Positions 34,055-47,165 of a stretch of DNA of 64,000 nucleotides are shown here, one piece after another. Under the pieces are notes generated by a model. It was not told the DNA's origin. It worked only from the letters and a program-made list of their open reading frames with translations, and did not search any database. Every line of letters starts with the position of its first letter. Position 1 is the stretch's first letter. Position numbers and translations under genes: made by a program. The DNA is from Kordia algicida OT-1 (lineage in GTDB: Bacteria; Bacteroidota; Bacteroidia; Flavobacteriales; Flavobacteriaceae): assembly GCF_000154725.1 (NCBI RefSeq), contig NZ_DS544873.1:3881339-3945338 (forward strand). Reading direction: 5' to 3'.

Positions 34055-34194
34055 AACCTTGAATCATTGAATTTTTAAATCTTTGAATTGATACCACACG
34101 ATTCCGAAATCTAAGTTTTCTATCAAAGATATCATAGCTTTTGGGGAGTATTTAGAAAACAATTCTGAACTACTTGAAGCAAGCTAGGTAATAC

Positions 34195-34238
34195 AAACCG
34201 TAGCATAACTACATCTTAGTTATGCTACGGTTTTTTTT
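34195..34238 (+). terminator. Very strong terminator at the left edge of the element
   Basis: Arms AAACCGTAGCATAACTA (34195-34211) and TAGTTATGCTACGGTTT (34217-34233) pair perfectly over 17 bp with loop CATCT and a run of eight T. It may insulate the element from EnvC transcription. Confidence 0.9.
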
Positions 34239-34253
34239 ATGCTTCACTTTTTT

Positions 34254-34270
34254 CAGTCTTGGACTGAGAA
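34254..34270. promoter_or_regulatory. Palindromic site CAGTCTTGGACTGAGAA, left copy
   Basis: CAGTC-ttg-GACTG is a perfect inverted repeat. A 16-of-17 match lies in inverse orientation at 40378-40394, upstream of the recombinase. This copy sits 38 bases before the HTH-like gene, as an operator would. Confidence 0.5.
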
Positions 34271-34307
34271 CATTCAAAAATTCACAAAACATTCAAATCG
34301 AAAAATT

Positions 34308-34517
34308 ATGTCTACAACATACCGTTATAAATCCGTTTCAAAAGTTCAATTAGCAGATGCCTATGGTGTCACACTTCACACATTTTGCCAATGGCTCAAA
34401 CCTATTGAGCATAGTATAGGCGAATACGTTGCACGATGCTTCACACCAAAACAAGTTCAGAAAATTGTTGAACTCTTAGGAGAACCCGAAGATATCACAA
34501 CAGTTAGAAACCAATAA
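34308..34517 (+). CDS. Small HTH-like protein of the element
   Basis: From the ATG at 34308 the product is 69 residues (MSTTYRYKSVSKVQLADAYGVTLHTFCQWL). The segment KVQLADAYGVTLHTFCQWLKPI reads as a helix-turn-helix like those of MerR/excisionase-type or DUF4248-like small proteins; a second helical part (VARCFTPKQVQKIVELLGEP) follows. An upstream in-frame ATG at 34239 lies in the terminator tail and is rejected. It is 19 bases before the VapE gene, so it is a candidate regulator, helicase loader or excisionase. Confidence 0.65.
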   Translation: MSTTYRYKSVSKVQLADAYGVTLHTFCQWLKPIEHSIGEYVARCFTPKQVQKIVELLGEPEDITTVRNQ

Positions 34518-34536
34518 CTATTAAACAGCTATTACA

Positions 34537-35814
34537 ATGATAATTGAACATACAGATATCGAACGTACAAACGGAGAAGAAAACGAAAAGAAAACACCCA
34601 TTGAGAAAATTATGGATTATTTAAACTTGCGTTATGTATTCCGTAGAAATGTACTAACCTCAAACATAGAATGCAAAGAAATTGACCAAGTTGAGTATAG
34701 AATTTTAGACGATTCTATACTTAATTCTATTTGGGTTAAAATGCAAGTGGATGGCTTTAAGTATTCGCCCACTTTTATAGGGCGAATTTTAAATTCTGAC
34801 TTCATTGCAGACTATAATCCAATCACAGCATATTTTGAAAGCTTACCTATGCTATCAGATGACAAAGACTATATTTCCATGCTTGCCGATACTATTACCG
34901 TTCAAGACATTAAAGTCAATGATGTAGCACTTAGAAAGCTTTGGAAACCATATTTTAAAAAGTGGCTTGTAGCTTCGGTTGCGACTTGTTTAGGATTAGG
35001 AATAAATCACACGTGTTTAATTTTAGTAGGCAATCAAGGAAGCGGAAAAACCACATGGTTAAACAAGCTTTGCCCTGCTGAAATGAAAAAGTATTTAGTT
35101 TGCTCACATATCAATCCTTCGCTTACCGATCAAACAACAGCAAACTATTTGGCTGAAAAATGGTTTGTAAATATTGACGACCAACTAGAAACGATTTTCG
35201 GAAAAGATTTTAATTCCATGAAGGCGATTATAACCGCACCAAGTGTGACCAATCGCAAGACATGGCACAAGTTCTCAAAGACGCGTCCACGTGTATGTTC
35301 CTTTATGGGTTCTGTAAACGAACCAAAGTTTTTAACAGATACAGAAAACAGACGCTATTTAGTATTTAGCGCAGAAAAAATCAATTATACGCATGAGGTA
35401 GATATGAATAAGGTTTGGGCGCAAGCTTTACAGTTAGTCAAAGAGAATTATCCGTATTGGTTTTCATCAGAAGAAATGAAACAACTTAACAAAGCAAATC
35501 AAGTATATAGACAGCAAAGTATTGAAGAAGAATATCTAATACGAATGTTTAAACCTTGCAAGCCAGACAACCCAAAAGCACGTTTTTTAATGCCTTCGGA
35601 ACTACTAACATTATTAAATGCGCATTCGGGAATGCGTTTGTCACTTAAAAAGCTATCACGAGCGATGAAAGTATGCGGTTATGGAGAACCAATATCAAAA
35701 AGATTAAAAGATATAGGTGCAAGAAAAGTATATCCAGTACTTGAAATTTCTGAAAGCGAACAAAACAACATACAGCAAGAATATAGGAACGATTTTAAGC
35801 TAGATAACAAATAG
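34537..35814 (+). CDS. VapE-type AAA+ ATPase/helicase
   Basis: This 425-residue member of the virulence-associated E family has a helical N-terminal domain (about 1-145) and an ATPase with Walker A GNQGSGKTTWLNKL near residue 165, Walker B-like WFVNIDDQLE, and the VapE phrases KAIITAPSVTNRKTWHK, CSFMGSVNEPKFLTDTENRRYLVF. A C-terminal winged-helix-like tail follows. VapE proteins replicate or prime replication of phages, satellites and islands. There is no primase domain here, so a host primase or another initiator would be required. It ends at a terminator 27 bases downstream. Confidence 0.88.
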   Translation: MIIEHTDIERTNGEENEKKTPIEKIMDYLNLRYVFRRNVLTSNIECKEIDQVEYRILDDSILNSIWVKMQVDGFKYSPTFIGRILNSDFIADYNPITAYFESLPMLSDDKDYISMLADTITVQDIKVNDVALRKLWKPYFKKWLVASVATCLGLGINHTCLILVGNQGSGKTTWLNKLCPAEMKKYLVCSHINPSLTDQTTANYLAEKWFVNIDDQLETIFGKDFNSMKAIITAPSVTNRKTWHKFSKTRPRVCSFMGSVNEPKFLTDTENRRYLVFSAEKINYTHEVDMNKVWAQALQLVKENYPYWFSSEEMKQLNKANQVYRQQSIEEEYLIRMFKPCKPDNPKARFLMPSELLTLLNAHSGMRLSLKKLSRAMKVCGYGEPISKRLKDIGARKVYPVLEISESEQNNIQQEYRNDFKLDNK

Positions 35815-35840
35815 TATAACAATTAGCAAAAACACTCTAA

Positions 35841-35866
35841 AAAACCGCGTAAAGCGGTTTTTTTTA
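35841..35866 (+). terminator. Terminator after vapE
   Basis: AAACCGC-gtaaa-GCGGTTT with a run of eight T. The tail CGGTTTTTTTTATGC (35855-35869) is identical to the tail of the terminator at 34228-34242. Confidence 0.85.
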
Positions 35867-35984
35867 TGCCTTAAAAGTATTTACACAAATCCTGTAAGTA
35901 AATCAAGTTCAAATACACCTCTTTTTCAAAATTTCAGAAATATCCAAATTGTATTTGCCACAATACCACACCGTATAATCAATA

Positions 35985-36320
35985 GCTTATATATCTATAT
36001 AACTATCTTATATATAATATATTATATAATAAATGTAGTATATACAATAGTAGTAAAAATGTGGTAATGGTGGTAGCAACTTTTAAAAGTGTAGTAGCGT
36101 GGTAAGTAGTTTTTTCAAAATTTGAACTTCGTTTTTTTTGAAAAGTCTTTAATGAGCAGTCAAAATACACTCAACGAACTTTAACGAATTGTCATAAACT
36201 ACTAGAAAACAATCAAATAACAGTCTAGTAACAGTCAAATGCAAGTAAGAAATCAGAAATTATCTAAGAAATTAAGAGTATGTTTTTACATATTTACGGT
36301 AAACCGTAAGGAATAAATGT
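35985..36320. other. AT-rich non-coding region with repeats, possible replication origin
   Basis: The 878-base gap 35815-36692 has no supported gene. 35985-36055 is almost pure A/T (tatatataatatattatataa). At 36177-36206 three 10-bp phased units AACTTTAACG, AATTGTCATA, AACTACTAGA appear, related to the larger array at 40211. CAGTC words recur nearby (36156, 36221, 36231). A palindrome TACGGT-aa-ACCGTA lies at 36295-36308 and a half copy TACGGTAAA at 36369. An AT-rich stretch plus iterons beside a replication-type ATPase gene suggests an origin (inference). Confidence 0.45.
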
Positions 36321-36404
36321 TTCTTATTTGTAATGTAGTAATGATTTGCGCAAAGACCATACTTATTTTACGGTAAAACTATATTTGTTTGCTTTTCATA
36401 GACG

Positions 36405-36412
36405 TATATTTG
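36405..36412 (+). promoter_or_regulatory. Promoter box in front of the structured leader
   Basis: TATATTTG matches TAnnTTTG. It would start a transcript near 36419, directly before the first hairpin of the leader at 36432. Confidence 0.5.
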
Positions 36413-36420
36413 TGCTGTCT

Positions 36421-36692
36421 AAAAATAATATTTCAAATGATACCCCACTATCATTTGAAGATATAAAACACATTTTTATAATTTATAAATATGTGTTTTA
36501 TCAAATTAAAATTTCTTTTAATTAGCAGATTGCTTTTCCCCATTAAGTGAAATGTTTTAAGAAGGAGTTTTATTATTAAAAACTTTTCCCAGATGCAGTG
36601 ATTATCGCCATAATCTTTAACTGCACCATATTTTCTAATGGGCGTAGCCGAAAACCCTCTAAGAGTAGGCATAATTTAAATAACTAATAAAA
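36421..36692 (+). ncRNA. Long structured leader or small RNA of the element
   Basis: Three strong hairpins follow each other: TTCAAATGATA-ccccac-TATCATTTGAA (36432-36459), ATAAAACACAT...ATGTGTTTTAT (36463-36501) and TGCAGTGATTAT-cgcc-ATAATC-ttta-ACTGCA (36594-36625). A smaller fold (GGC-gta-GCC, CTC-taa-GAG) lies at 36651-36668. It begins at a promoter box and runs to the lipoprotein gene at 36693. It may be a cis-regulatory leader or an independent RNA. No known class was recognised. Confidence 0.45.
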
Positions 36693-38522
36693 ATGAAAAA
36701 AAACATTTTTATGTTCGCTTTGTTACTTTTTTTATTCTCATGTAGTAATGATGAGTTTGGAGAAGCAGAAAAAACAAAAAGCCATTTATCAACAGATTTA
36801 AGAGTTCAGTATAAAAGAGGCAACAATGTTTCTACCTCTGCAATCAATTACATAAGGGAACGAACGAACAACACCTTTAGGGTCGACACTAAGAAAGGGA
36901 GAATCAAATTAAATAACTCACAATCTTTTTCAAAAAGTGATGAGCTAGGAACTGTAGATACTTCAAAAGAAATTGTAGTTGTAAATGAAACAAATACAAA
37001 GCATACTTTTAAAGTCATTACACCTCAAGAACCTTTAAATACTATTACAAACCTTATCATTGTAGAAAAAGGAAATGATAGCTATGAATATTTTTTAAAA
37101 TATACCTTTTCAGGAGAACTTCCCATAAATGAAGAAACAGGAACCATAGATTTTTCTAAATTCAATGGAACCATTGAAACTTTTAATGCTAGTGGTGATT
37201 TAATAGGTTCAATGACAATTGAAAACAGCATAATAACCAGCGATCAAGGACAACTTTCGCCTTGTCCTGATGACAATCAAGATCCTAATGATGATGATGA
37301 CACAAACGCAGGTTCAAATTCAAGCGGTTCAGATAGTAGTACAGGAATACCAAATGACGATACAGACGAAGATCCAGTAAATGCTGGTAATGGAGATCCT
37401 GATAGTAGTGCCCAATTTACAGACCCAAATGGCGATTGTGGATTGACATTTAGTTATGAACAATGTGGTTGTGGAGGCGATGCTAATGGTCATGCGCCAC
37501 AAGCGGGTTATGACTGTTGTCAAGGAAGTCCTTTAGTAATTAGAGATTGTAATGGAACGATTATTGCACAAAGAAATTCAGGTACGTCAACAACGATGTT
37601 TAAAAGAAATGTTTTTGATCCATGTGATGATGGCGATGTTGGTGTAATTTTAGATGATGATGTTTTATGCGGAATGAACGACGAAAACTTTAATGCATAT
37701 TATTCTAATAAATCGCCTTTTAATGTAGATTTAAGTCAAGTAAGAAAACATTGCGATAGTATAAATTTTCCTGATCCAGCAAATGAAAAATTTATGTGTA
37801 TTTATAATAAGCTTATAAAAACTCCTCTTTATAAAAATATGATAGAGAATACCTTTGGAGAAAATCAAAGTAATTTACATTTAACTTTTGTTATGGTAGA
37901 CACTCTTTCTAGAAGTTCTGCGGGTAGAACAGATAAAATGCCAGGGACAAATCCTACAAGAAATACTCAAACTGGTATAGTGAATTTACATTTAAGAATA
38001 AGAATTAGTAAAGAATATATGGAAAACTATTCAGCAATTGCAGTAGCTAAAACAATATTACATGAAACTATACATTCGTATCTTATGGTAAAGCATGTAA
38101 ACTGTAATCAAGGAACGCCGATTGATGAAATTATAGAGGAATTAAATAATAAATCTTTTGAAGAATTAATGGAATATTATTTTAATAATGCTTGTGATGG
38201 TCAAGAACAGCATGAATTCATGTATGATAAAATGCTGCCTGTTTTTAGAAATATATTATCTAGTATTAGAGACGAATTAATTCCTCCTGCTCATGTTGAA
38301 GCTGCGGAATTAGATGACACATTTATAAACGAATCAAACCCTAATGGTGATACAGTCGCTTTTAATTGGAATGAATTTTATAAATACTTATCCTTACAAG
38401 GACTGCAAAACACTAATTATTTTGCTAATAACATACTGAATAATCCACATAAATATTCTAACTACCTTAGGTATGCTGATGAATATGGAAGGTTTTTATT
38501 TGAAAAAGATTGTATAAATTAA
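36693..38522 (+). CDS. Lipoprotein with HExxH motif, putative metallopeptidase (cargo)
   Basis: The 609-residue product has a lipobox (FLFSC, Cys17), a beta-rich N-terminal domain (about 30-195), an acidic low-complexity linker (about 196-250; PDDNQDPNDDDDT), a Cys-rich patch (CGLTFSYEQCGCGG, GYDCCQGS) and a C-terminal helical domain. There the motif HETIH (457-461, AKTILHETIHSYLM) is followed by EEQ/HEFMYDKM at about 505-511, like zinc peptidases of the SprT/zincin kind. Surface exposure is likely. The gene starts behind the structured leader. The protease call is inferred from the motif alone. Confidence 0.65.
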   Translation: MKKNIFMFALLLFLFSCSNDEFGEAEKTKSHLSTDLRVQYKRGNNVSTSAINYIRERTNNTFRVDTKKGRIKLNNSQSFSKSDELGTVDTSKEIVVVNETNTKHTFKVITPQEPLNTITNLIIVEKGNDSYEYFLKYTFSGELPINEETGTIDFSKFNGTIETFNASGDLIGSMTIENSIITSDQGQLSPCPDDNQDPNDDDDTNAGSNSSGSDSSTGIPNDDTDEDPVNAGNGDPDSSAQFTDPNGDCGLTFSYEQCGCGGDANGHAPQAGYDCCQGSPLVIRDCNGTIIAQRNSGTSTTMFKRNVFDPCDDGDVGVILDDDVLCGMNDENFNAYYSNKSPFNVDLSQVRKHCDSINFPDPANEKFMCIYNKLIKTPLYKNMIENTFGENQSNLHLTFVMVDTLSRSSAGRTDKMPGTNPTRNTQTGIVNLHLRIRISKEYMENYSAIAVAKTILHETIHSYLMVKHVNCNQGTPIDEIIEELNNKSFEELMEYYFNNACDGQEQHEFMYDKMLPVFRNILSSIRDELIPPAHVEAAELDDTFINESNPNGDTVAFNWNEFYKYLSLQGLQNTNYFANNILNNPHKYSNYLRYADEYGRFLFEKDCIN

Positions 38523-38535
38523 TTTGAAAATTATT

Positions 38536-39030
38536 ATGGGAAAATATATATGCATATTGACATTGTTTTGTTTAGGTGTATTAAAGGGACAAAATTTACA
38601 AGACCTCAAAGGAGAAAAATCAATATTTATTCTTTATGATGCAACAGATAATGATGTAAAAAAGAACTTATCTTCTTTAGCAAATGGAAAGATAAAAGCA
38701 GACACTTATTACTATACTTTTTTGAATCAAAATAAAAAGGATGATTGTGAGTCTGAGCAATTTAATTTTTGGATTACATACAAGAGTTATGAGAGCTTTA
38801 ACGATTTAGCCAAAAACAAAAAAACCTCTAAGTTTAATGTAAGTAAAGATTTTTTAGAAATAAATAAATCTAAAATTATAAACAGAGCTTTTATGGATTC
38901 TATTGGTTTTAAAAAAACATTCAATCTTTTAAAAGATATTGAATATATCTATTTAATAGATAAACAAGAGGTTAAAAATAATGTCTATACCGTAAAAAAA
39001 GTTAATTTAAGTTTTTCTCGTGAAGAATAA
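38536..39030 (+). CDS. Exported protein of the element, unknown
   Basis: From ATG 38536 the product is 164 residues with a signal peptide (MGKYICILTLFCLGVLKGQ). A TTG four codons upstream is possible too, abutting the previous stop. The mature part is Lys/Asn-rich and ends KKVNLSFSREE; no conserved motif is recognised. It follows the HExxH lipoprotein by 13 bases and is probably co-expressed with it. Confidence 0.6.
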   Translation: MGKYICILTLFCLGVLKGQNLQDLKGEKSIFILYDATDNDVKKNLSSLANGKIKADTYYYTFLNQNKKDDCESEQFNFWITYKSYESFNDLAKNKKTSKFNVSKDFLEINKSKIINRAFMDSIGFKKTFNLLKDIEYIYLIDKQEVKNNVYTVKKVNLSFSREE

Positions 39031-39060
39031 TTTTTTGAGATTAAAATAAAGAATAGCAAT

Positions 39061-39888
39061 ATGAAGCATTTTATTGTAGCACTTTTTCTTCTTTTTACCT
39101 CTTATCTTTTTGCTTGTGATTGTGATGCAAAAAAGCCAATATTAGAGTTTTACAATGCAGAATTTGTTTTTGAAGGAGAAATTGTATCAAAAGTATATGC
39201 TGAAGATGCACAAACATATACAGTAAGATTTGTAATTACTAAACATTACAAAGATGGAGAAAAGCCAGAAGAATTGAGTTTTGTTTTAAAATCAGAAGAA
39301 TTATATACTGACATTTCAACATTATGTGATTGGAATGTAGAAGTTAGAGAAAGATGGCTTGTGTATGCACACAGAAATAAAAAAGGTGCTTTAAATTTTA
39401 GTTATTACTGTTCCAATTCAAAAAAACCTGACTTTTCAGCAATTGGCGAAAATGAACAAGAAGTTTTAGAAAATGGTAATGATTTTATTTTAGAAAATTA
39501 TATTTACGAAAATGAGAATGGTTTTACAAATCCAAAACCACTGACAGATGTAGCTGCTGTACTAAAATCAGGAAAAAAAGATAATTACGAAAATACGTTT
39601 GCCGTTATAAAAATTCATGTTGACAAAGAAGGATATTTAAAAGCGGTGACTACTGATAGAGACTATAATGCGCTGAAAATAGATAAAATTTTTGATCTCC
39701 TATATTCTTTTACTGTCGATGAAAATATGGCAGTTTCAAATTTTGAAAAAGAAGCAATACGCTTATCAAAAAAGATATATAAATGGGAAATCAAATATCA
39801 CAAAAAAAGCAACATACCAGTATCTTATATAAAACCCGTTATTTTTCAATATGACAAAAAGAATCATACTTGGAGTTATGAGTTTTAA
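39061..39888 (+). CDS. Exported protein with TIMP/NTR-like domain
   Basis: The 275-residue product has a signal peptide ending at Ala18 followed directly by CDCD (Cys19, Cys21). Then comes EFYNAEFVFEGEIVSKVY, TVRFVITKHYKDGE, STLCDWNVEVRERWLVYA and FSYYCSNSKK. The N-terminal CxC, the F-x-G-E/KV strand, the late Cys and the LVYA...C order match the netrin/TIMP-like fold. TIMPs inhibit zincin proteases through the N-terminal Cys. The LFAC signal could alternatively be a lipobox. The last 110 residues are unassigned. It is the third gene of the cargo block with the HExxH lipoprotein. Confidence 0.6.
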   Translation: MKHFIVALFLLFTSYLFACDCDAKKPILEFYNAEFVFEGEIVSKVYAEDAQTYTVRFVITKHYKDGEKPEELSFVLKSEELYTDISTLCDWNVEVRERWLVYAHRNKKGALNFSYYCSNSKKPDFSAIGENEQEVLENGNDFILENYIYENENGFTNPKPLTDVAAVLKSGKKDNYENTFAVIKIHVDKEGYLKAVTTDRDYNALKIDKIFDLLYSFTVDENMAVSNFEKEAIRLSKKIYKWEIKYHKKSNIPVSYIKPVIFQYDKKNHTWSYEF

Positions 39889-39953
39889 CTTTTTCTGTTG
39901 AATTATTCTTAAAAACCATTATAAATATATGTTGTATATGGCTTCAAGAAAAC

Positions 39954-40023
39954 ATGAAAAAACTTTTTTATTATACTACTTTTTATCGCCTATAATTTGT
40001 TTGGACAAACTATAAACAAATAA
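39954..40023 (+). pseudogene. Remnant of an exported-protein gene start
   Basis: ATGAAAAAA starts a signal-peptide-like sequence that continues only after a one-base shift (NFFIILLFIAYNLFGQ, 39961-40008) and stops at 40021. It is short, so chance is possible; it resembles a broken 5' end of another cargo gene. Confidence 0.3.
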
Positions 40024-40057
40024 TTATCTAAAATTATATTTATTCTAAATTCGCAAG

Positions 40058-40087
40058 GCTTCAATTGTAAAGATTGAAGCTTTTGTT
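40058..40087 (+). terminator. Terminator of the cargo block
   Basis: GCTTCAAT-tgtaaag-ATTGAAGC followed by TTTTGTT. Confidence 0.75.
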
Positions 40088-40115
40088 ATATAATATTGAA
40101 TATGTTATATAATAT
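40084..40115. repeat. AT-rich direct repeat TGTTATATAATAT
   Basis: Two copies at 40084-40096 and 40103-40115 form a strongly melting stretch just before the phased repeats. Confidence 0.6.
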
Positions 40116-40150
40116 GTTGCTATGTTATAAATATAACTAATAAAACCTAT

Positions 40151-40208
40151 CGAACGCAATATTTTTAAACGAAACTCCACGAACGTAATATTTTTAAATA
40201 AAACTCCA
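40151..40208. repeat. 29-bp tandem direct repeat, two copies
   Basis: Copy 1 begins CGAACGCAATATTTTTAAAC (40151) and copy 2 CGAACGTAATATTTTTAAAT (40180); they differ at only three positions and end ACTCCA. Confidence 0.8.
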
Positions 40209-40210
40209 CA

Positions 40211-40285
40211 AACTGGCATAAACTTGCACGAACTTCCATAAACTTAAAATGTTTGACACGAACTAGCACGAACTGGCATAAACCG
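40211..40285. repeat. 10-bp helically phased repeats (iteron-like)
   Basis: Consecutive 10-base blocks read AACTGGCATA, AACTTGCACG, AACTTCCATA, AACTTAAAAT, GTTTGACACG, AACTAGCACG, AACTGGCATA. The exact 10-base register keeps each unit on one face of the helix. Similar units occur at 36177-36206. The 657-base gap 39889-40545 holds these, the AT-rich repeat, a terminator and a palindrome but no intact gene. Confidence 0.75.
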
Positions 40286-40377
40286 CAAAGTAGTTTTTCA
40301 AACTTTATAATATTTGTGAAAGTTAATCAAAGACCACTAGCATAATATTTAACACCTTAATATTGCTTAATTGTCTT

Positions 40378-40394
40378 TTCTTAGTCCAAGACTG
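40378..40394. promoter_or_regulatory. Palindromic site, right copy (inverse orientation)
   Basis: On the minus strand it reads CAGTCTTGGACTAAGAA, 16 of 17 identical to the left copy at 34254-34270. It lies 150 bases before the recombinase module. Confidence 0.5.
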
Positions 40395-40545
40395 TGAAAA
40401 TATAGTTTGAAAATTTGAATGTAGGTTACACAAATCTTTATATCATTGATAATATAATTTTCAAAATATCATATACATAGTTAAGGAAATTTAGATGCTA
40501 AAGCGCATGATTAACAGTATTGTATAAAACTGTAATTCCTTGAAT

Positions 40546-40746
40546 ATGAAAATTGTAAAAGATACAAAGACACCACAAAACCTAACTATTGAAAAACTTA
40601 GAAGTTTTAAAGGATTTGCCAATGTATCAGATGCAGAAGCAAAGCGAATTATAGCCAGCATGAAAGAACTATCAATATTAACATATAATACCATTATTGA
40701 ACATGAGCAATTTAAGTCAATTCCAAAGCTTCGGAAAGCGGAGTAA
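40546..40746 (+). CDS. Small protein overlapping the recombinase gene
   Basis: This 66-residue protein starts at ATG 40546 (MKIVKDTKTPQNLTIEKLRSFKGF). It is charged and helical, with NVSDAEAKRIIASMKELSILTYNTIIEHEQFK. Its last 44 bases overlap the recombinase gene in another frame, implying coupled translation. Possible roles are a directionality factor or a control protein; neither is shown by sequence. Confidence 0.6.
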   Translation: MKIVKDTKTPQNLTIEKLRSFKGFANVSDAEAKRIIASMKELSILTYNTIIEHEQFKSIPKLRKAE

Positions 40747-42265
40747 TAAAACTGTTATTCATAATAACAAAGCGGTTATTTACACGAGAGTTTCAAGTGG
40801 AAAGCAAAAAGAAAATACAAGCTTGGAAAACCAACGCGAATACTGTACACTATATGCAGAACGTGCCAAGTTTCAAATAAGTGCCTATTTTGGTGGAACA
40901 AATGAAAGTGCGAAAAATGACGATAGAAAAGAGTATCAAAAAATGCTCACTTTTGTACGTCAAAAGAAAATTTCAAATATCATAGTGTACAGTATTGACC
41001 GCTTTTCACGTGCGGGTTCTTCTGCTATCACTACCGTTGAAAAATTAAAAGAAAAAGGTATCAACGTCATTTCGGTAACCCAACCAATGGACACCAAAAC
41101 ATCTACAGGTACATTCTTTCAAAACCTAAATTTACTATTCAGTAAATACGATAATGACCAACGAAAAGAAAAGACCACCGCAGGAATGAAACAACGCCTT
41201 TTGCAAGGGTATTATATCGGAGTTGCGCCAGTAGGTTATAAAAATTCAAGGGATGCACAAAACCGCCCTATTTTAATACATAGTGACAAAGCGAAACTCA
41301 TACGCAAAGCTTTTGAATGGAAAGCAAATGAAAGTATATCAAATGTTGAGATTATAAAACGTCTAAAGAAATACGGGTTAACCATACAAAAGCAACACAT
41401 GACGCGCATATTTAGAAATCCTATCTATTGCGGATTACTAGCAAATCGTTTACTTGATGGTAAGGTTGTCAAAGGAAATCATAAGCCTATCGTATCAAAA
41501 GAATTGTTCTTAAAAGTAAATAATATCAATACCGAGAAAAACGGGATAAGAAGCAAACAGCGAAAGAACAACCCAAACTTACCAATGAGAGGATTTGTAA
41601 AATGTGATGCGTGTGGAAAACCAATCACAGGATATACAGAAAAAAAATATAACCTTGATTATTACAGAGGTCACACAAAAGGGTGTTGCGGATATAAACG
41701 TGCTTACAAACTCAATGAAAAGTTCAAAACCTTTTTAGCTTCATTTCAAATAGACGAGCATATAATAGAACCATTAAAGCTACAAATGAAATATACCTTT
41801 GATTACTTCAACGAATCAAATAAGGACGTTATAGAGCATTTAAAATACAATCTAAAGGCAACTAAAGAAAAGATTGAAAAAGTAGAAGAACGTTTCGTAT
41901 ATGGCGAAATTAACATGGAACTATACAATAAATTCATCAACAAATTAAAATCAGAAGAAGCTGAAATACTCAAAGAAATAGAAAAAAGTGGTATTGAAAA
42001 GTCTAAGTTTAATTTATACGTTGAAAATTCGCTAAAATTATTAGCTAACTTACCTAAAACATGGGAGTTATCAAGTTTTACAGTTAAGCAAAAATTACAA
42101 AACCTATTGTTTCCTAATGGTATTCGCTATAACCGTGAAAATGATAGTTATCTAAGTTTTGAAATAAGTCCAATATTAACAGTAACAAGTACATTATCAG
42201 TAAATTATAATCAAATAAATATGAACACAAAAACAAACAAAATGAAAAAGTCGCAAGGGGTATGA
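40703..42265 (+). CDS. Large serine recombinase (integrase) of the element
   Basis: The 520-residue protein starts at ATG 40703. The catalytic domain has VIYTRVSSGKQKENTSLENQ (nucleophile Ser near 31), then IVYSIDRFSRAG and TGTFFQNLNLLFSKYDNDQRKEKTTAGMKQR. The recombinase domain carries APVGYKNSRDAQNRPIL and HMTRIFRNPIYCGLL. The zinc ribbon has CDACGKPITG and a later GCCGY; a coiled coil (EKIEKVEERFVYGEINMELYNKFINKLKSEEAEI) follows. This is the full large-serine-integrase plan, enough for integration. Its 3' end is about 30 bases from the presumed right edge, as usual for such integrases. Confidence 0.93.
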   Translation: MSNLSQFQSFGKRSNKTVIHNNKAVIYTRVSSGKQKENTSLENQREYCTLYAERAKFQISAYFGGTNESAKNDDRKEYQKMLTFVRQKKISNIIVYSIDRFSRAGSSAITTVEKLKEKGINVISVTQPMDTKTSTGTFFQNLNLLFSKYDNDQRKEKTTAGMKQRLLQGYYIGVAPVGYKNSRDAQNRPILIHSDKAKLIRKAFEWKANESISNVEIIKRLKKYGLTIQKQHMTRIFRNPIYCGLLANRLLDGKVVKGNHKPIVSKELFLKVNNINTEKNGIRSKQRKNNPNLPMRGFVKCDACGKPITGYTEKKYNLDYYRGHTKGCCGYKRAYKLNEKFKTFLASFQIDEHIIEPLKLQMKYTFDYFNESNKDVIEHLKYNLKATKEKIEKVEERFVYGEINMELYNKFINKLKSEEAEILKEIEKSGIEKSKFNLYVENSLKLLANLPKTWELSSFTVKQKLQNLLFPNGIRYNRENDSYLSFEISPILTVTSTLSVNYNQINMNTKTNKMKKSQGV

Positions 42266-42489
42266 GCAAAGCGAATCTAAATTTCAGGTTTTAGCTTTTG
42301 GGTGTTAGCTATTAGTCAAGTCCTAAGAGGATTTGGAAATTCAAATTAAAATACGAATATACTAAGAGCGAAGCCAAGTCTAAAAACCAATATTTCTTCT
42401 AAAGTCGAACTTTATAGTTGAAGATTTAAGAGCAGTAAGTTTATTCATAAAAGAACATGCTTCTTTATGTATCACAATTAAGATCGAAA

Positions 42490-45509: not shown

Positions 45510-45704
45510 TTAGTGATCTGCTGGTGATGGGTCTGCGGGTCTTTCTTCCACTTTACAGTCATCTCCTTTTGTCCAATTTACACAAGACATACAACAAGTT
45601 CCGTGTCCTCCAGCAGCAGTCTTAGCAATTCCACCGCGAACAACATCAAGGTTAGAAATTGTGTTCTTGCTTAGGCTTAAGTTTGATAAATTCTTTTTTT
45701 TCAT
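45510..45704 (-). CDS. GG-leader natural-product precursor peptide 1
   Basis: This 64-residue peptide has a leader MKKKNLSNLSLSKNTISNLDVVRGG, typical of Bacteroidota class I lanthipeptide/RiPP precursors with a double-Gly cut. The predicted core IAKTAAGGHGTCCMSCVNW continues TKGDDCKVEERPADPSPADH. The core holds four Cys and several Ser/Thr. The paralogue at 45819 shares K-T-A-x-G-G, C-x-M-S-C-V-N-x-T-K and C-x-V. No LanB/LanC or C39 exporter is in the window. Confidence 0.75.
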   Translation of the reverse strand: MKKKNLSNLSLSKNTISNLDVVRGGIAKTAAGGHGTCCMSCVNWTKGDDCKVEERPADPSPADH

Positions 45705-45818
45705 AATAAAATAATTAAAGGTTGTTAATATAATTGAGTGATAACTTAGTTTCTGGAAACAAGAATATTTTTGAAATAGATGATAAAAATTTCTTGTGTA
45801 AAGAAATGCAGTTATCGA

Positions 45819-46019
45819 TTAATTGTTTGCAGGTTCCTGACCTATTGGTTCTTTGTCCACTCTACAATATTTTGCTTTTGTAAAATTAACACAAGACATG
45901 TAGCATGTTTCGTTTCCGCCATTGGCTGTTTTTGTAGCGCCACCACGCAAATCGTGAAGATTAGAGATTCTCTTTTTCTTTAAGCTTAATTTTAAGTTTG
46001 GTAATTTCTTTTTTTTCAT
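45819..46019 (-). CDS. GG-leader natural-product precursor peptide 2
   Basis: This 66-residue paralogue of the preceding peptide has leader MKKKKLPNLKLSLKKKRISN then LHDLRGG. The core ATKTANGGNETCYMSCVNFT continues KAKYCRVDKEPIGQEPANN with three Cys. One Cys of peptide 1 (CC) is Tyr here (CY), so CxMSC and the later C are the conserved cysteines. It is the upstream gene of the pair (115-base gap) and divergent from the papain-like protease gene. Confidence 0.75.
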   Translation of the reverse strand: MKKKKLPNLKLSLKKKRISNLHDLRGGATKTANGGNETCYMSCVNFTKAKYCRVDKEPIGQEPANN

Positions 46020-46211: not shown

Positions 46212-47165
46212 ATGAAACTTTTTCCTTTTTATACTCTTATTTTAAGCATTTCATGTGTGTGGAGTCAAACAACGCTTCAAAACCCAGAAACACTTAGGCG
46301 AACTCAAAAAAGTACCATTCACATAGGTTCTCAAACTCCTGTAAAAAATCAAGGAAACGGAAATACTTGTAGTGCATTTGGTGTAGCGGCTGCTTTGGAA
46401 GTATTGCCAAACATGCCAAAAGATATTAGTGAAAACTTTTTGTATTCGGCACAAAAATATGAACAACTCGAAACTAACATTGGTGTTACTAAAGGAAATT
46501 TTTTAAAATCCTACATCAAGTCATTGCCAAAGTATGGAATTCTTACAGAAGCCGAATTGCCATATCCAGAAATCTTAGCAGAAACGTGGAACGAAAACGA
46601 TCCAGAAATATTAAAAGCACTCAAAGAATCTACAACAGGACCAGTTTCTTTTTTATACAAATACAAGTCAATTGCAAAATTGCTATCGTTAGATTCTTTT
46701 GAATATCTAGGACAAGTTGATAGTAAAAATGTAAAGCATTTACAATATTTACTTGATAGTGGCGTAAAAGCGATTCCTGTGTCATATGAATTGTATATTC
46801 CAGCTTGGAAATCCTTCAAATCACAAAAATATACAACCATTACGCCCAATGAAGGATATGGTATTTTAATGCAAGATGGAAGCTACAAAAAATACTCTGA
46901 CATCAAAAAGTTGTATCCAGATATCAATACACGAATTAATAATAGATCTGTTACATTTTCAAGAACTGTAGTGCCAACCGCAAATTATAATCCGTATGGT
47001 GGTCACGTGGTTACTATTGTAGGGTACGATTCTGAAGGTTTTATTATTAAAAATTCTTGGGGAGCAGATTGGCGTTATTACGGATATGAACGCATTAGCT
47101 ACGATTACCATGAAATTTTTGCCTATGAAGCTTTGATTTTAAGACGCGTGAGTTATAAAAAGTGA
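46212..47165 (+). CDS. Secreted C1-family (papain-like) cysteine protease
   Basis: The 317-residue protein has a signal peptide (1-18, ending CVWSQ). There is no long propeptide. The active-site pieces are QTPVKNQGNGNTCSAFG (Gln47, nucleophile Cys53), GGHVVTIVGYD (His265) and IIKNSWGADW (Asn281). This is the bleomycin-hydrolase/papain fold in its Bacteroidota exported form. It lies divergently, 192 bases from the GG-leader peptide genes, so it may process the exported peptides (inference). It could also be an unrelated scavenging protease. Confidence 0.85.
   Translation: MKLFPFYTLILSISCVWSQTTLQNPETLRRTQKSTIHIGSQTPVKNQGNGNTCSAFGVAAALEVLPNMPKDISENFLYSAQKYEQLETNIGVTKGNFLKSYIKSLPKYGILTEAELPYPEILAETWNENDPEILKALKESTTGPVSFLYKYKSIAKLLSLDSFEYLGQVDSKNVKHLQYLLDSGVKAIPVSYELYIPAWKSFKSQKYTTITPNEGYGILMQDGSYKKYSDIKKLYPDINTRINNRSVTFSRTVVPTANYNPYGGHVVTIVGYDSEGFIIKNSWGADWRYYGYERISYDYHEIFAYEALILRRVSYKK

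What the first reader, a model, noticed from the sequence alone, without database searches (positions are those of the whole stretch)
34135..42302. Compact VapE plus serine-integrase element with exported cargo, no capsid or transfer genes
Seen: an HTH-like gene, a VapE ATPase, three exported cargo proteins, and a large serine recombinase at the right edge, inserted between envC-like and thioesterase genes. Known: VapE is carried by phages and phage-inducible satellites. Inferred: the element is a satellite-type or self-replicating minimal island in Bacteroidota. A combination of VapE with a large serine integrase and secreted protease-type cargo is not one I can match to a described group.
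Basis: partly seen in the sequence, partly recalled or inferred. Interest (0 to 1): 0.8.

Follow-up and report, generated by a model that had tools for sequence, protein, structure and literature searches.

The report
Toxin island with self-splitting integrase
A small piece of mobile DNA in a bacterium carries a predicted protein-cutting toxin with likely protective partners, and it inserts by an enzyme whose own gene is cut by the insertion, an arrangement that could act as a built-in switch.

Summary
The element is 34093-42263 (8,171 bp), fixed by uninterrupted paralogous copies of the dispersed repeat it entered and by a G003 island sharing its left end. HTH and VapE lie inside; nine congeners keep envC-thioesterase without it. 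The pairing of VapE with this serine integrase was seen only here: sibling islands lack VapE, VapE relatives lack this integrase, ORF175 is missing, and a related G007 copy has lost VapE. The cargo looks like a lipoprotein polymorphic toxin: its N-terminal half is shared with an AHH-nuclease toxin on another island of this genome; its C-terminal half holds an HExxH peptidase motif. Two exported partners follow, one a homologue of animal TIMP inhibitors (profile E 6.5e-6; four cysteines spaced nearly as in TIMP-1). Unexpectedly, attP lies inside the integrase gene: its last ~30 codons sit at the left end when integrated, and the frame closes at the circular joint in three of three islands checked. 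I found no serine integrase described this way (partial library). Toxicity, immunity and any switching role are inferred, not shown.

The parts
34091..34092 (.). attL core (AT; exact dinucleotide uncertain by 1-2 bp)
   Evidence: best junction 34092/42264, 11 spanning alignments to repeat copies in 5 fetched G000 stretches; alignments
34095..34187 (+). Displaced 3' end of the integrase gene (30 codons + stop), left terminus of the element
   Evidence: reads in frame with Rec across the circular joint in W and E064; this end is 94% identical over 104 bp to the left end of the G003 island
34189..34239 (+). Hairpin followed by T run, terminator-like
   Evidence: inverted repeat I5, arms 34189-34211 and 34217-34239, 91% complementary
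34239..34517 (+). HTH gene, DUF4248-like tail; start probably 34308
   Evidence: PF14053 8.2e-5, below cut-off, and PF13384 0.021; relatives upstream of VapE in 13 of 16 loci
34537..35814 (+). VapE-domain ATPase/helicase, 425 aa, no primase part
   Evidence: PF05272 1.3e-30, PHROG 1313 1.6e-45
36638..36671 (+). DUF805b RNA in front of the toxin gene
   Evidence: RF02914 33.7 bits, E 1.4e-6, just under the gathering score of 35.6
36693..38522 (+). Lipoprotein, candidate polymorphic toxin, 609 aa; HETIH zinc motif at 38061-38075
   Evidence: PF10263 SprT-like 1.2e-6; N-terminal 339 aa 77% identical to the AHH protein in L067
38536..39030 (+). Small exported protein p168, candidate immunity protein
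   Evidence: relatives behind three other HExxH lipoprotein genes, in L171, L173, L175; no Pfam family
39061..39888 (+). TIMP-like exported protein p275, mature N-terminus CDC if cleaved before Cys19; candidate inhibitor/immunity protein
   Evidence: profile of p275 and 8 relatives hits TIMP-2 (2tmp) at 6.5e-6; invariant Cys19, 21, 89, 117
40194..40283 (.). Array of 10-bp direct repeats upstream of the integrase
   Evidence: similar position in 9 of 15 Rec loci, unit sequence differs
40546..40746 (+). Small gene p68 overlapping the integrase start
   Evidence: relative before Rec in 13 of 15 fetched Rec loci: 11 over 64 residues or more at 46-56% identity, L077 and L078 over 33-36 residues; none in L075 and L076
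40703..42265 (+). Large serine integrase as present in the integrated state; its stop is completed by host DNA
   Evidence: PF00239 8.6e-31, PF07508 5e-13, PHROG 95 integrase 4.3e-74
42262..42263 (.). attR core

Best explanation
An 8.17-kb integrative toxin island. A large serine integrase (with the small gene p68) inserts the circular form into a copy of a dispersed intergenic repeat, here between envC and a thioesterase gene. attP lies inside the 3' end of the integrase gene, so insertion moves the last ~30 codons to the other end of the element and leaves an integrase that ends where host DNA supplies a stop (shown from sequence). I infer that the shortened enzyme is altered or less able to excise, so that insertion would be stabilised and excision would need a full-length relative or p68; this is not shown. 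The payload is a surface or periplasmic lipoprotein toxin with a C-terminal zinc-peptidase domain, plus p168 and a TIMP-like protein; I infer that these protect the carrier, the TIMP-like one by its mature Cys-x-Cys end capping the zinc. HTH and VapE are a replication module shared with another element family and trimmed here; their present use is unclear.
For: Ends: host repeats match the window up to 34091-34092 and from about 42262-42265, and in G000:633023-633226 the halves lie joined. The G003 island E064 shares the left terminal 104 bp at 94% and a right end with the same p68-Rec pair; its flanks, with the shared TAAC counted once, read TCTAACAGCGAAGCG, as does the orthologous site of G004 without the island. 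Split gene: frame open across the circular joint in 3 of 3 islands checked, W and E064 and E069; tail-like sequence on the same strand upstream of Rec in 10 of 10 islands with long upstream DNA (W, E064-E072); a decayed integrase relic in G001 carries the tail unsplit. Cargo: N-terminus shared with an AHH protein whose next gene is DUF1963; a TIMP-like gene 21-1932 bp downstream of an HExxH lipoprotein gene in 4 of 10 TIMP-like loci and in 4 of 6 such lipoprotein loci; sibling islands carry an Rhs core, PoNi immunity or grasp/SPASM maturases.
Against: No circular form, excision or toxicity has been seen. Only 3 joints were read, by my own joining of ends; chance alone keeps a frame one time in three each. 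In the other seven islands the pairing of tail and Rec, some 16-56 kb apart, is by strand and nearness; some regions hold more than one tail, or tails without Rec, and no tail was reported in L073-L078, which have 0-13 kb of upstream DNA. W-type and E069-type tails resemble each other only weakly (26 aa, 38%, E 0.16). The agreement of E064's left flank with G004 spans only about 9 bases. TIMP-like genes stand without an HExxH gene in 6 of 10 loci. Both structure predictions failed (mean pLDDT 33.6 and 38.9). Pfam TIMP for p275 itself is below cut-off (0.014).
Confidence: 0.75

Rival explanations
1. A phage satellite or VapE-driven minimal replicon that uses a helper phage.
For: VapE is a phage-type helicase; a Rec relative (56%) sits on an IMG/VR contig, L151.
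Against: No capsid or packaging-interference gene; no VapE relative in viral contigs with the patterns used; ORF175 absent; related copy in G007 without VapE; the fetched sibling islands lack VapE.
Confidence: 0.12
2. Two neighbouring insertions: a decayed HTH-VapE element beside a separate serine-integrase cassette.
For: Rec and VapE occur apart in all other loci fetched; GC content differs along the unit.
Against: The left terminus before HTH matches the left end of the G003 island, and G007 holds left end, HTH and the post-VapE stretch in the same order.
Confidence: 0.05
3. The left-end open frame is only a chance reading and attP merely lies next to the integrase gene.
For: Short tail; an open frame in one case would be no surprise. 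Of 11 further tail loci, one has a stop (L244) and one is split over two frames (L239).
Against: In frame in 3 of 3 islands read; 9 of those 11 loci keep the tail as one open stretch at 72-97% identity; unsplit relic in G001; integrated Rec ORFs end in host-coded residues in sibling islands, several reading into tRNA genes.
Confidence: 0.06
4. The TIMP-like protein is a general secreted regulator and p168 alone is the immunity protein.
For: TIMP-like genes stand without an HExxH gene in 6 of 10 loci; L171 and L175 have p168-like but no TIMP-like genes; the Listeria Tim protein is cleaved by its metzincin (PMC8235301, abstract and passages).
Against: In L172 (also seen as L155) the TIMP-like gene is the next gene after the HExxH lipoprotein gene, 21 bp on.
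Confidence: 0.35

Closest known systems
Archaeal 'suicidal' (SSV-type) tyrosine integrases
   Same: The att site lies within the integrase gene and integration splits it; an intact relative may be needed for excision (PMC8371274, passages)
   Different: Here a bacterial serine integrase; only the last ~30 codons are displaced and the catalytic and recombinase domains stay whole. [quoted passage not shown]
Myxococcus phage Mx8 IntP (recalled, not looked up)
   Same: attP inside a bacterial integrase gene; integration changes the C-terminus
   Different: Tyrosine family, phage
Multi-targeting large serine recombinases (PMC10083194, passages, 12 of 28 places shown)
   Same: Closely related integrases at many unrelated sites
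   Different: The places shown do not mention a split integrase gene; 'c-termin' has 0 occurrences
Listeria metzincin and TIMP-like pair Mtz-Tim (PMC8235301, abstract and passages)
   Same: Adjacent genes for a secreted zinc peptidase and a TIMP-like protein, phage-linked, said to occur in pairs across Gram-positive bacteria
   Different: Here the peptidase motif sits in the variable end of a polymorphic lipoprotein and is of SprT-like type; the TIMP similarity is detectable by sequence profile; the Cys-x-Cys end follows a signal-peptide-like stretch that by eye lacks the lipobox described for Tim
Polymorphic toxin systems (PMC3482391, passages)
   Same: Exchangeable C-terminal toxins including AHH nucleases and metallopeptidases, immunity genes alongside
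   Different: TIMP and SprT have 0 occurrences in the part of the text held

Membership tests
Large-serine-integrase island | Serine integrase with catalytic and recombinase domains at one end | tested here: met
   PF00239, PF07508, PHROG 95
Large-serine-integrase island | Defined attL/attR and an empty site | tested here: met
   Paralogous uninterrupted repeats; 9 of 9 congeners with envC keep the gene pair without Rec between. The orthologous attB of this insertion was not aligned base for base because intergenic DNA diverges
Large-serine-integrase island | Excision and transfer | not testable with these tools
   no reads
Phage satellite (PICI, P4-like, cfPICI; features recalled) | Packaging or capsid-interference genes | tested here: not met
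   none among 7 proteins; only a weak ATPase-type hit of VapE to a terminase small subunit family, E 0.076
Phage satellite (PICI, P4-like, cfPICI; features recalled) | Primase-helicase replication gene | tested here: inconclusive
   only the VapE helicase part, 425 aa
Polymorphic toxin | Same N-terminus with different C-terminal toxin domains | tested here: met
   AHH in L067, HExxH in the window, L171, L172, L173 with related N-termini
Polymorphic toxin | Toxic activity and cognate immunity | not testable with these tools
   position of p168 and p275 only
TIMP (N-domain) | Cysteines at mature 1, 3, 70 and 100 (TIMP-1; PMC9409782 passages) | tested here: met
   four invariant Cys in 9 of 9 sequences at mature 1, 3, 71, 99, if cleavage precedes Cys19; bonds and cleavage not tested; the third TIMP disulphide has no invariant counterpart
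TIMP (N-domain) | Sequence or fold match | tested here: met
   15 of 17 PDB matches up to E 10 are TIMPs, best 6.5e-6; p275 alone 0.014, under cut-off, and no PDB match by itself; fold not obtained
TIMP (N-domain) | Inhibits a metallopeptidase | not testable with these tools
   none
Integrase with attP inside its own gene | Frame continuous across attP and split in the integrated state | tested here: met
   3 of 3 joints, unsplit relic
Integrase with attP inside its own gene | Integrated form impaired | not testable with these tools
   none

The most novel reading that the evidence does not exclude
A family of bacterial large serine integrases carries attP inside the 3' end of its own gene, so that each insertion swaps the enzyme's C-terminal tail for host-coded residues or none. 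This would be a self-contained directionality switch in serine integrases, used by islands of 8 to perhaps 56 kb that trade antagonism cargo, one of them with a TIMP-like inhibitor as immunity to a zinc-peptidase toxin.
Probability: 0.45. Interest if true: 0.82.

Novelty: new variant of a known kind. Interest (0 to 1): 0.68.

Why it matters
How serine integrases keep integration one-way is an open question centred on their C-terminal part and on directionality factors (general knowledge). A natural family in which integration itself changes the C-terminus would give a direct test, and possibly a tool. The cargo adds a second point: an inhibitor family known from animals, reported in bacteria by structure prediction in the one paper I found (PMC8235301), here sits beside peptidase toxins on mobile DNA, which bears on where TIMPs came from.

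Tried and rejected
My own first guess for attL (near 34184) and a search for a left arm by inverted similarity to the right arm: led nowhere. Composite of two insertions: my working view, dropped. tRNA target: no tRNA in the window, although several siblings sit beside tRNA genes. E069 against G004: the G004 site carries a left-end relic as well as the attB-like copy, so it is not pristine. Structures of p275 and the toxin end: too poor to use, so no fold search was run. VapE and Rec in viral contigs: 0 and 1 confirmed loci. Rec in 397 genomes of the family at E up to 1e-150: 2 of 397, with at most 3 candidates scored per genome. Rec in phage and plasmid records: none at 1e-60; at 1e-15 126 and 17 records, the listed ones about 33% identical or less, so no free form with an unsplit gene was found. 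Integrases near the 16 VapE loci, sought with three tyrosine-type query pieces and one serine-type query: matches in L095 and L097 only; direct repeats around five of the VapE elements: none convincing. PADLOC: nothing better than E 0.003. The joined string of E064 printed was cut one base short by my script; I use the ends printed. Paper searches; listings only, except papers named with passages.
Full report
What is there. Between an envC-like gene and a thioesterase gene are an HTH gene, a VapE-domain ATPase, three genes for exported proteins, a 68-aa gene and a large serine integrase. Nine of the ten congeners gave an envC match (G010 none). In these nine the thioesterase gene follows at 47 bp to about 10.6 kb with other or no genes between, and none of the 40 Rec matches falls there. 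VapE is absent from all ten congeners; 4 of 99 genomes had a match, the own one included.

Ends. DNA searches of both flanks showed that the element sits in one copy of a dispersed intergenic repeat with about a hundred matches in G000 (108 and 101). Many copies match the left flank up to 34091-34092 and the right flank from about 42262-42265, and at G000:633023-633226 the two halves lie together. A scan of trial junctions peaks at 34092/42264 (11 spanning alignments among 21; shifts of 2 bases score almost as high). An island in G003 (E064, Rec 86% identical) begins with the same 104 bp at 94% identity in another host context and ends with the same gene pair. Its flanks, with the shared TAAC counted once, read TCTAACAGCGAAGCG, as does the G004 locus without the island; on the left this agreement is only about 9 bases long. 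HTH and VapE are therefore inside the element. In G007 a contig end shows the same left end and HTH (86% over 427 bp) followed directly by the stretch that lies at and behind the end of VapE here (74% over 476 bp), without VapE.

The split integrase. The left terminus reads YHTIPKSKFSIKDIIAFGEYLENNSELLEAS and stop. At the circular joint it continues the integrase frame; the same is true of E064 and of E069 in G006, whose tail differs in sequence and whose core is GTACC. Tail-like sequence on the same strand lies upstream of Rec in the other islands for which I had long upstream DNA: E065 and E066 by separate stretches, E067, E068, E071 and E072, and E070 by L150. With W, E064 and E069 that is 10 of 10; the pairing in seven of them is inference. 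No tail was reported in L073-L078, which have 0-13 kb of upstream DNA. In G001 a decayed integrase runs unbroken into such a tail, which shows the natural order without any joining by me. In the integrated state the Rec ORFs end in host-coded residues, in several islands read from tRNA genes; here the host supplies the last two bases of the stop. I could not test whether the shortened enzyme behaves differently.

Cargo. The 609-aa lipoprotein shares its N-terminal 339 residues (77%) with a protein on another island of the same genome that ends in an AHH nuclease domain (4.6e-7) and is followed by a DUF1963 gene. Its own end has HETIH and a SprT-like match. Related HExxH lipoproteins in G004 (two), G007 (two) and G069 (one, broken) are followed by small exported proteins. 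p275 and eight relatives share seven invariant residues, among them Cys19, 21, 89 and 117. Their profile finds TIMPs in the PDB set, 15 of 17 listed, best 6.5e-6; six of nine members hit Pfam TIMP at E up to 1, best 0.0016. Ten TIMP-like loci were examined: four have an HExxH lipoprotein gene 21-1932 bp upstream on the same strand, six have none within 6 kb; of the six lipoprotein loci, L171 and L175 lack a TIMP-like gene, as do two short stretches with weaker HExxH genes, L181 and L182. Other islands carry an Rhs core (E064), a PoNi immunity gene (E070) and grasp-with-SPASM maturases (E069, E072; the ATP-grasp partners score just under their cut-off). With the AHH island that is five of nine siblings; the cargo of E065, E066, E068 and E071 was not classified. 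That the toxin is antibacterial is inference.

VapE. Sixteen loci of named Bacteroidota records (three pairs from one isolate each) hold relatives at 55-66% identity. An ORF of about 175 aa precedes VapE in 14 of 16 (the other two begin inside VapE), and HTH in 13 of 16; the window lacks that ORF. Behind VapE lie at least two different gene sets, one with an LPD1 protein and a VanY-type endolysin; this integrase was found in none. The window module is thus a trimmed one whose present use is unknown.

Repeat array. In 9 of 15 Rec loci an array of 10-bp direct repeats lies 463-592 bp upstream of Rec (0 or 1 of 300 shuffles reach it), with a different unit in each; 4 of 1287 control windows, at two places, reach 0.60. 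In E064 a period of 11 scores higher (0.68 against 0.64). E066, E068, E073, E077, E078 and L151 lack the array. I have no explanation.

Literature. Suicidal integrases: PMC8371274 (passages), which states that recombinases disrupting their own gene are exclusive to archaea; Mx8 is recalled as a bacterial tyrosine case. No paper on a serine integrase of this kind appeared in the listing or in the places shown of PMC10083194; the library is partial. Bacterial TIMP-like proteins: PMC8235301 (abstract, passages), found.

Noticed in passing
window 36638-36671 and loci L183-L212: DUF805b RNAs number 11 to 53 matches per genome in the genus (31 in G000; E up to 0.01; 2 of 14 control genomes ring, none over the cut-off). 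Of 30 loci fetched a motif scan placed 18; behind 7 of these lies a short ORF with a double-glycine leader look. They may mark antagonism or peptide genes.
   Followed up: partly
window 40194-40283; Rec loci: 10-bp direct repeats of differing unit sequence at a similar distance upstream of the integrase in 9 of 15 loci.
   Followed up: partly
L082, L083, L086, L087: VapE-bearing elements with a ~1000-aa LPD1 protein that weakly matches a minor head/DNA pilot family (7e-4), a 264-aa protein without family and, in L083, a VanY endolysin: possible undescribed virus-like elements.
   Followed up: partly
L089, L090, L092: A second set of small VapE units (about 5 kb) with a shared gene set and no integrase recognised.
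   Followed up: no
L069/L130 (G006:C9), inside E069: ORFs that look by eye like Cas9, Cas1 and Cas2 lie between the island's ends; not tested by profile.
   Followed up: no
L238-L246: Integrase tails without a Rec match in the fetched stretch (4.5-19 kb beyond the tail); L238 and L242 are assigned to E065 and E066 by strand, the rest may be relic left ends. In L238 and L246 a 428-aa ORF that looks like a tyrosine recombinase follows the tail.
   Followed up: partly
window 45510-46019 and 46212-47165: Two short minus-strand ORFs with double-glycine leader look, next to a papain-like protease gene (PF00112 3.1e-12).
   Followed up: no
G000, about 100 places: A large family of dispersed intergenic repeats, in tandem in places such as 632.6-633.4 kb, serves as the insertion target.
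   Followed up: partly
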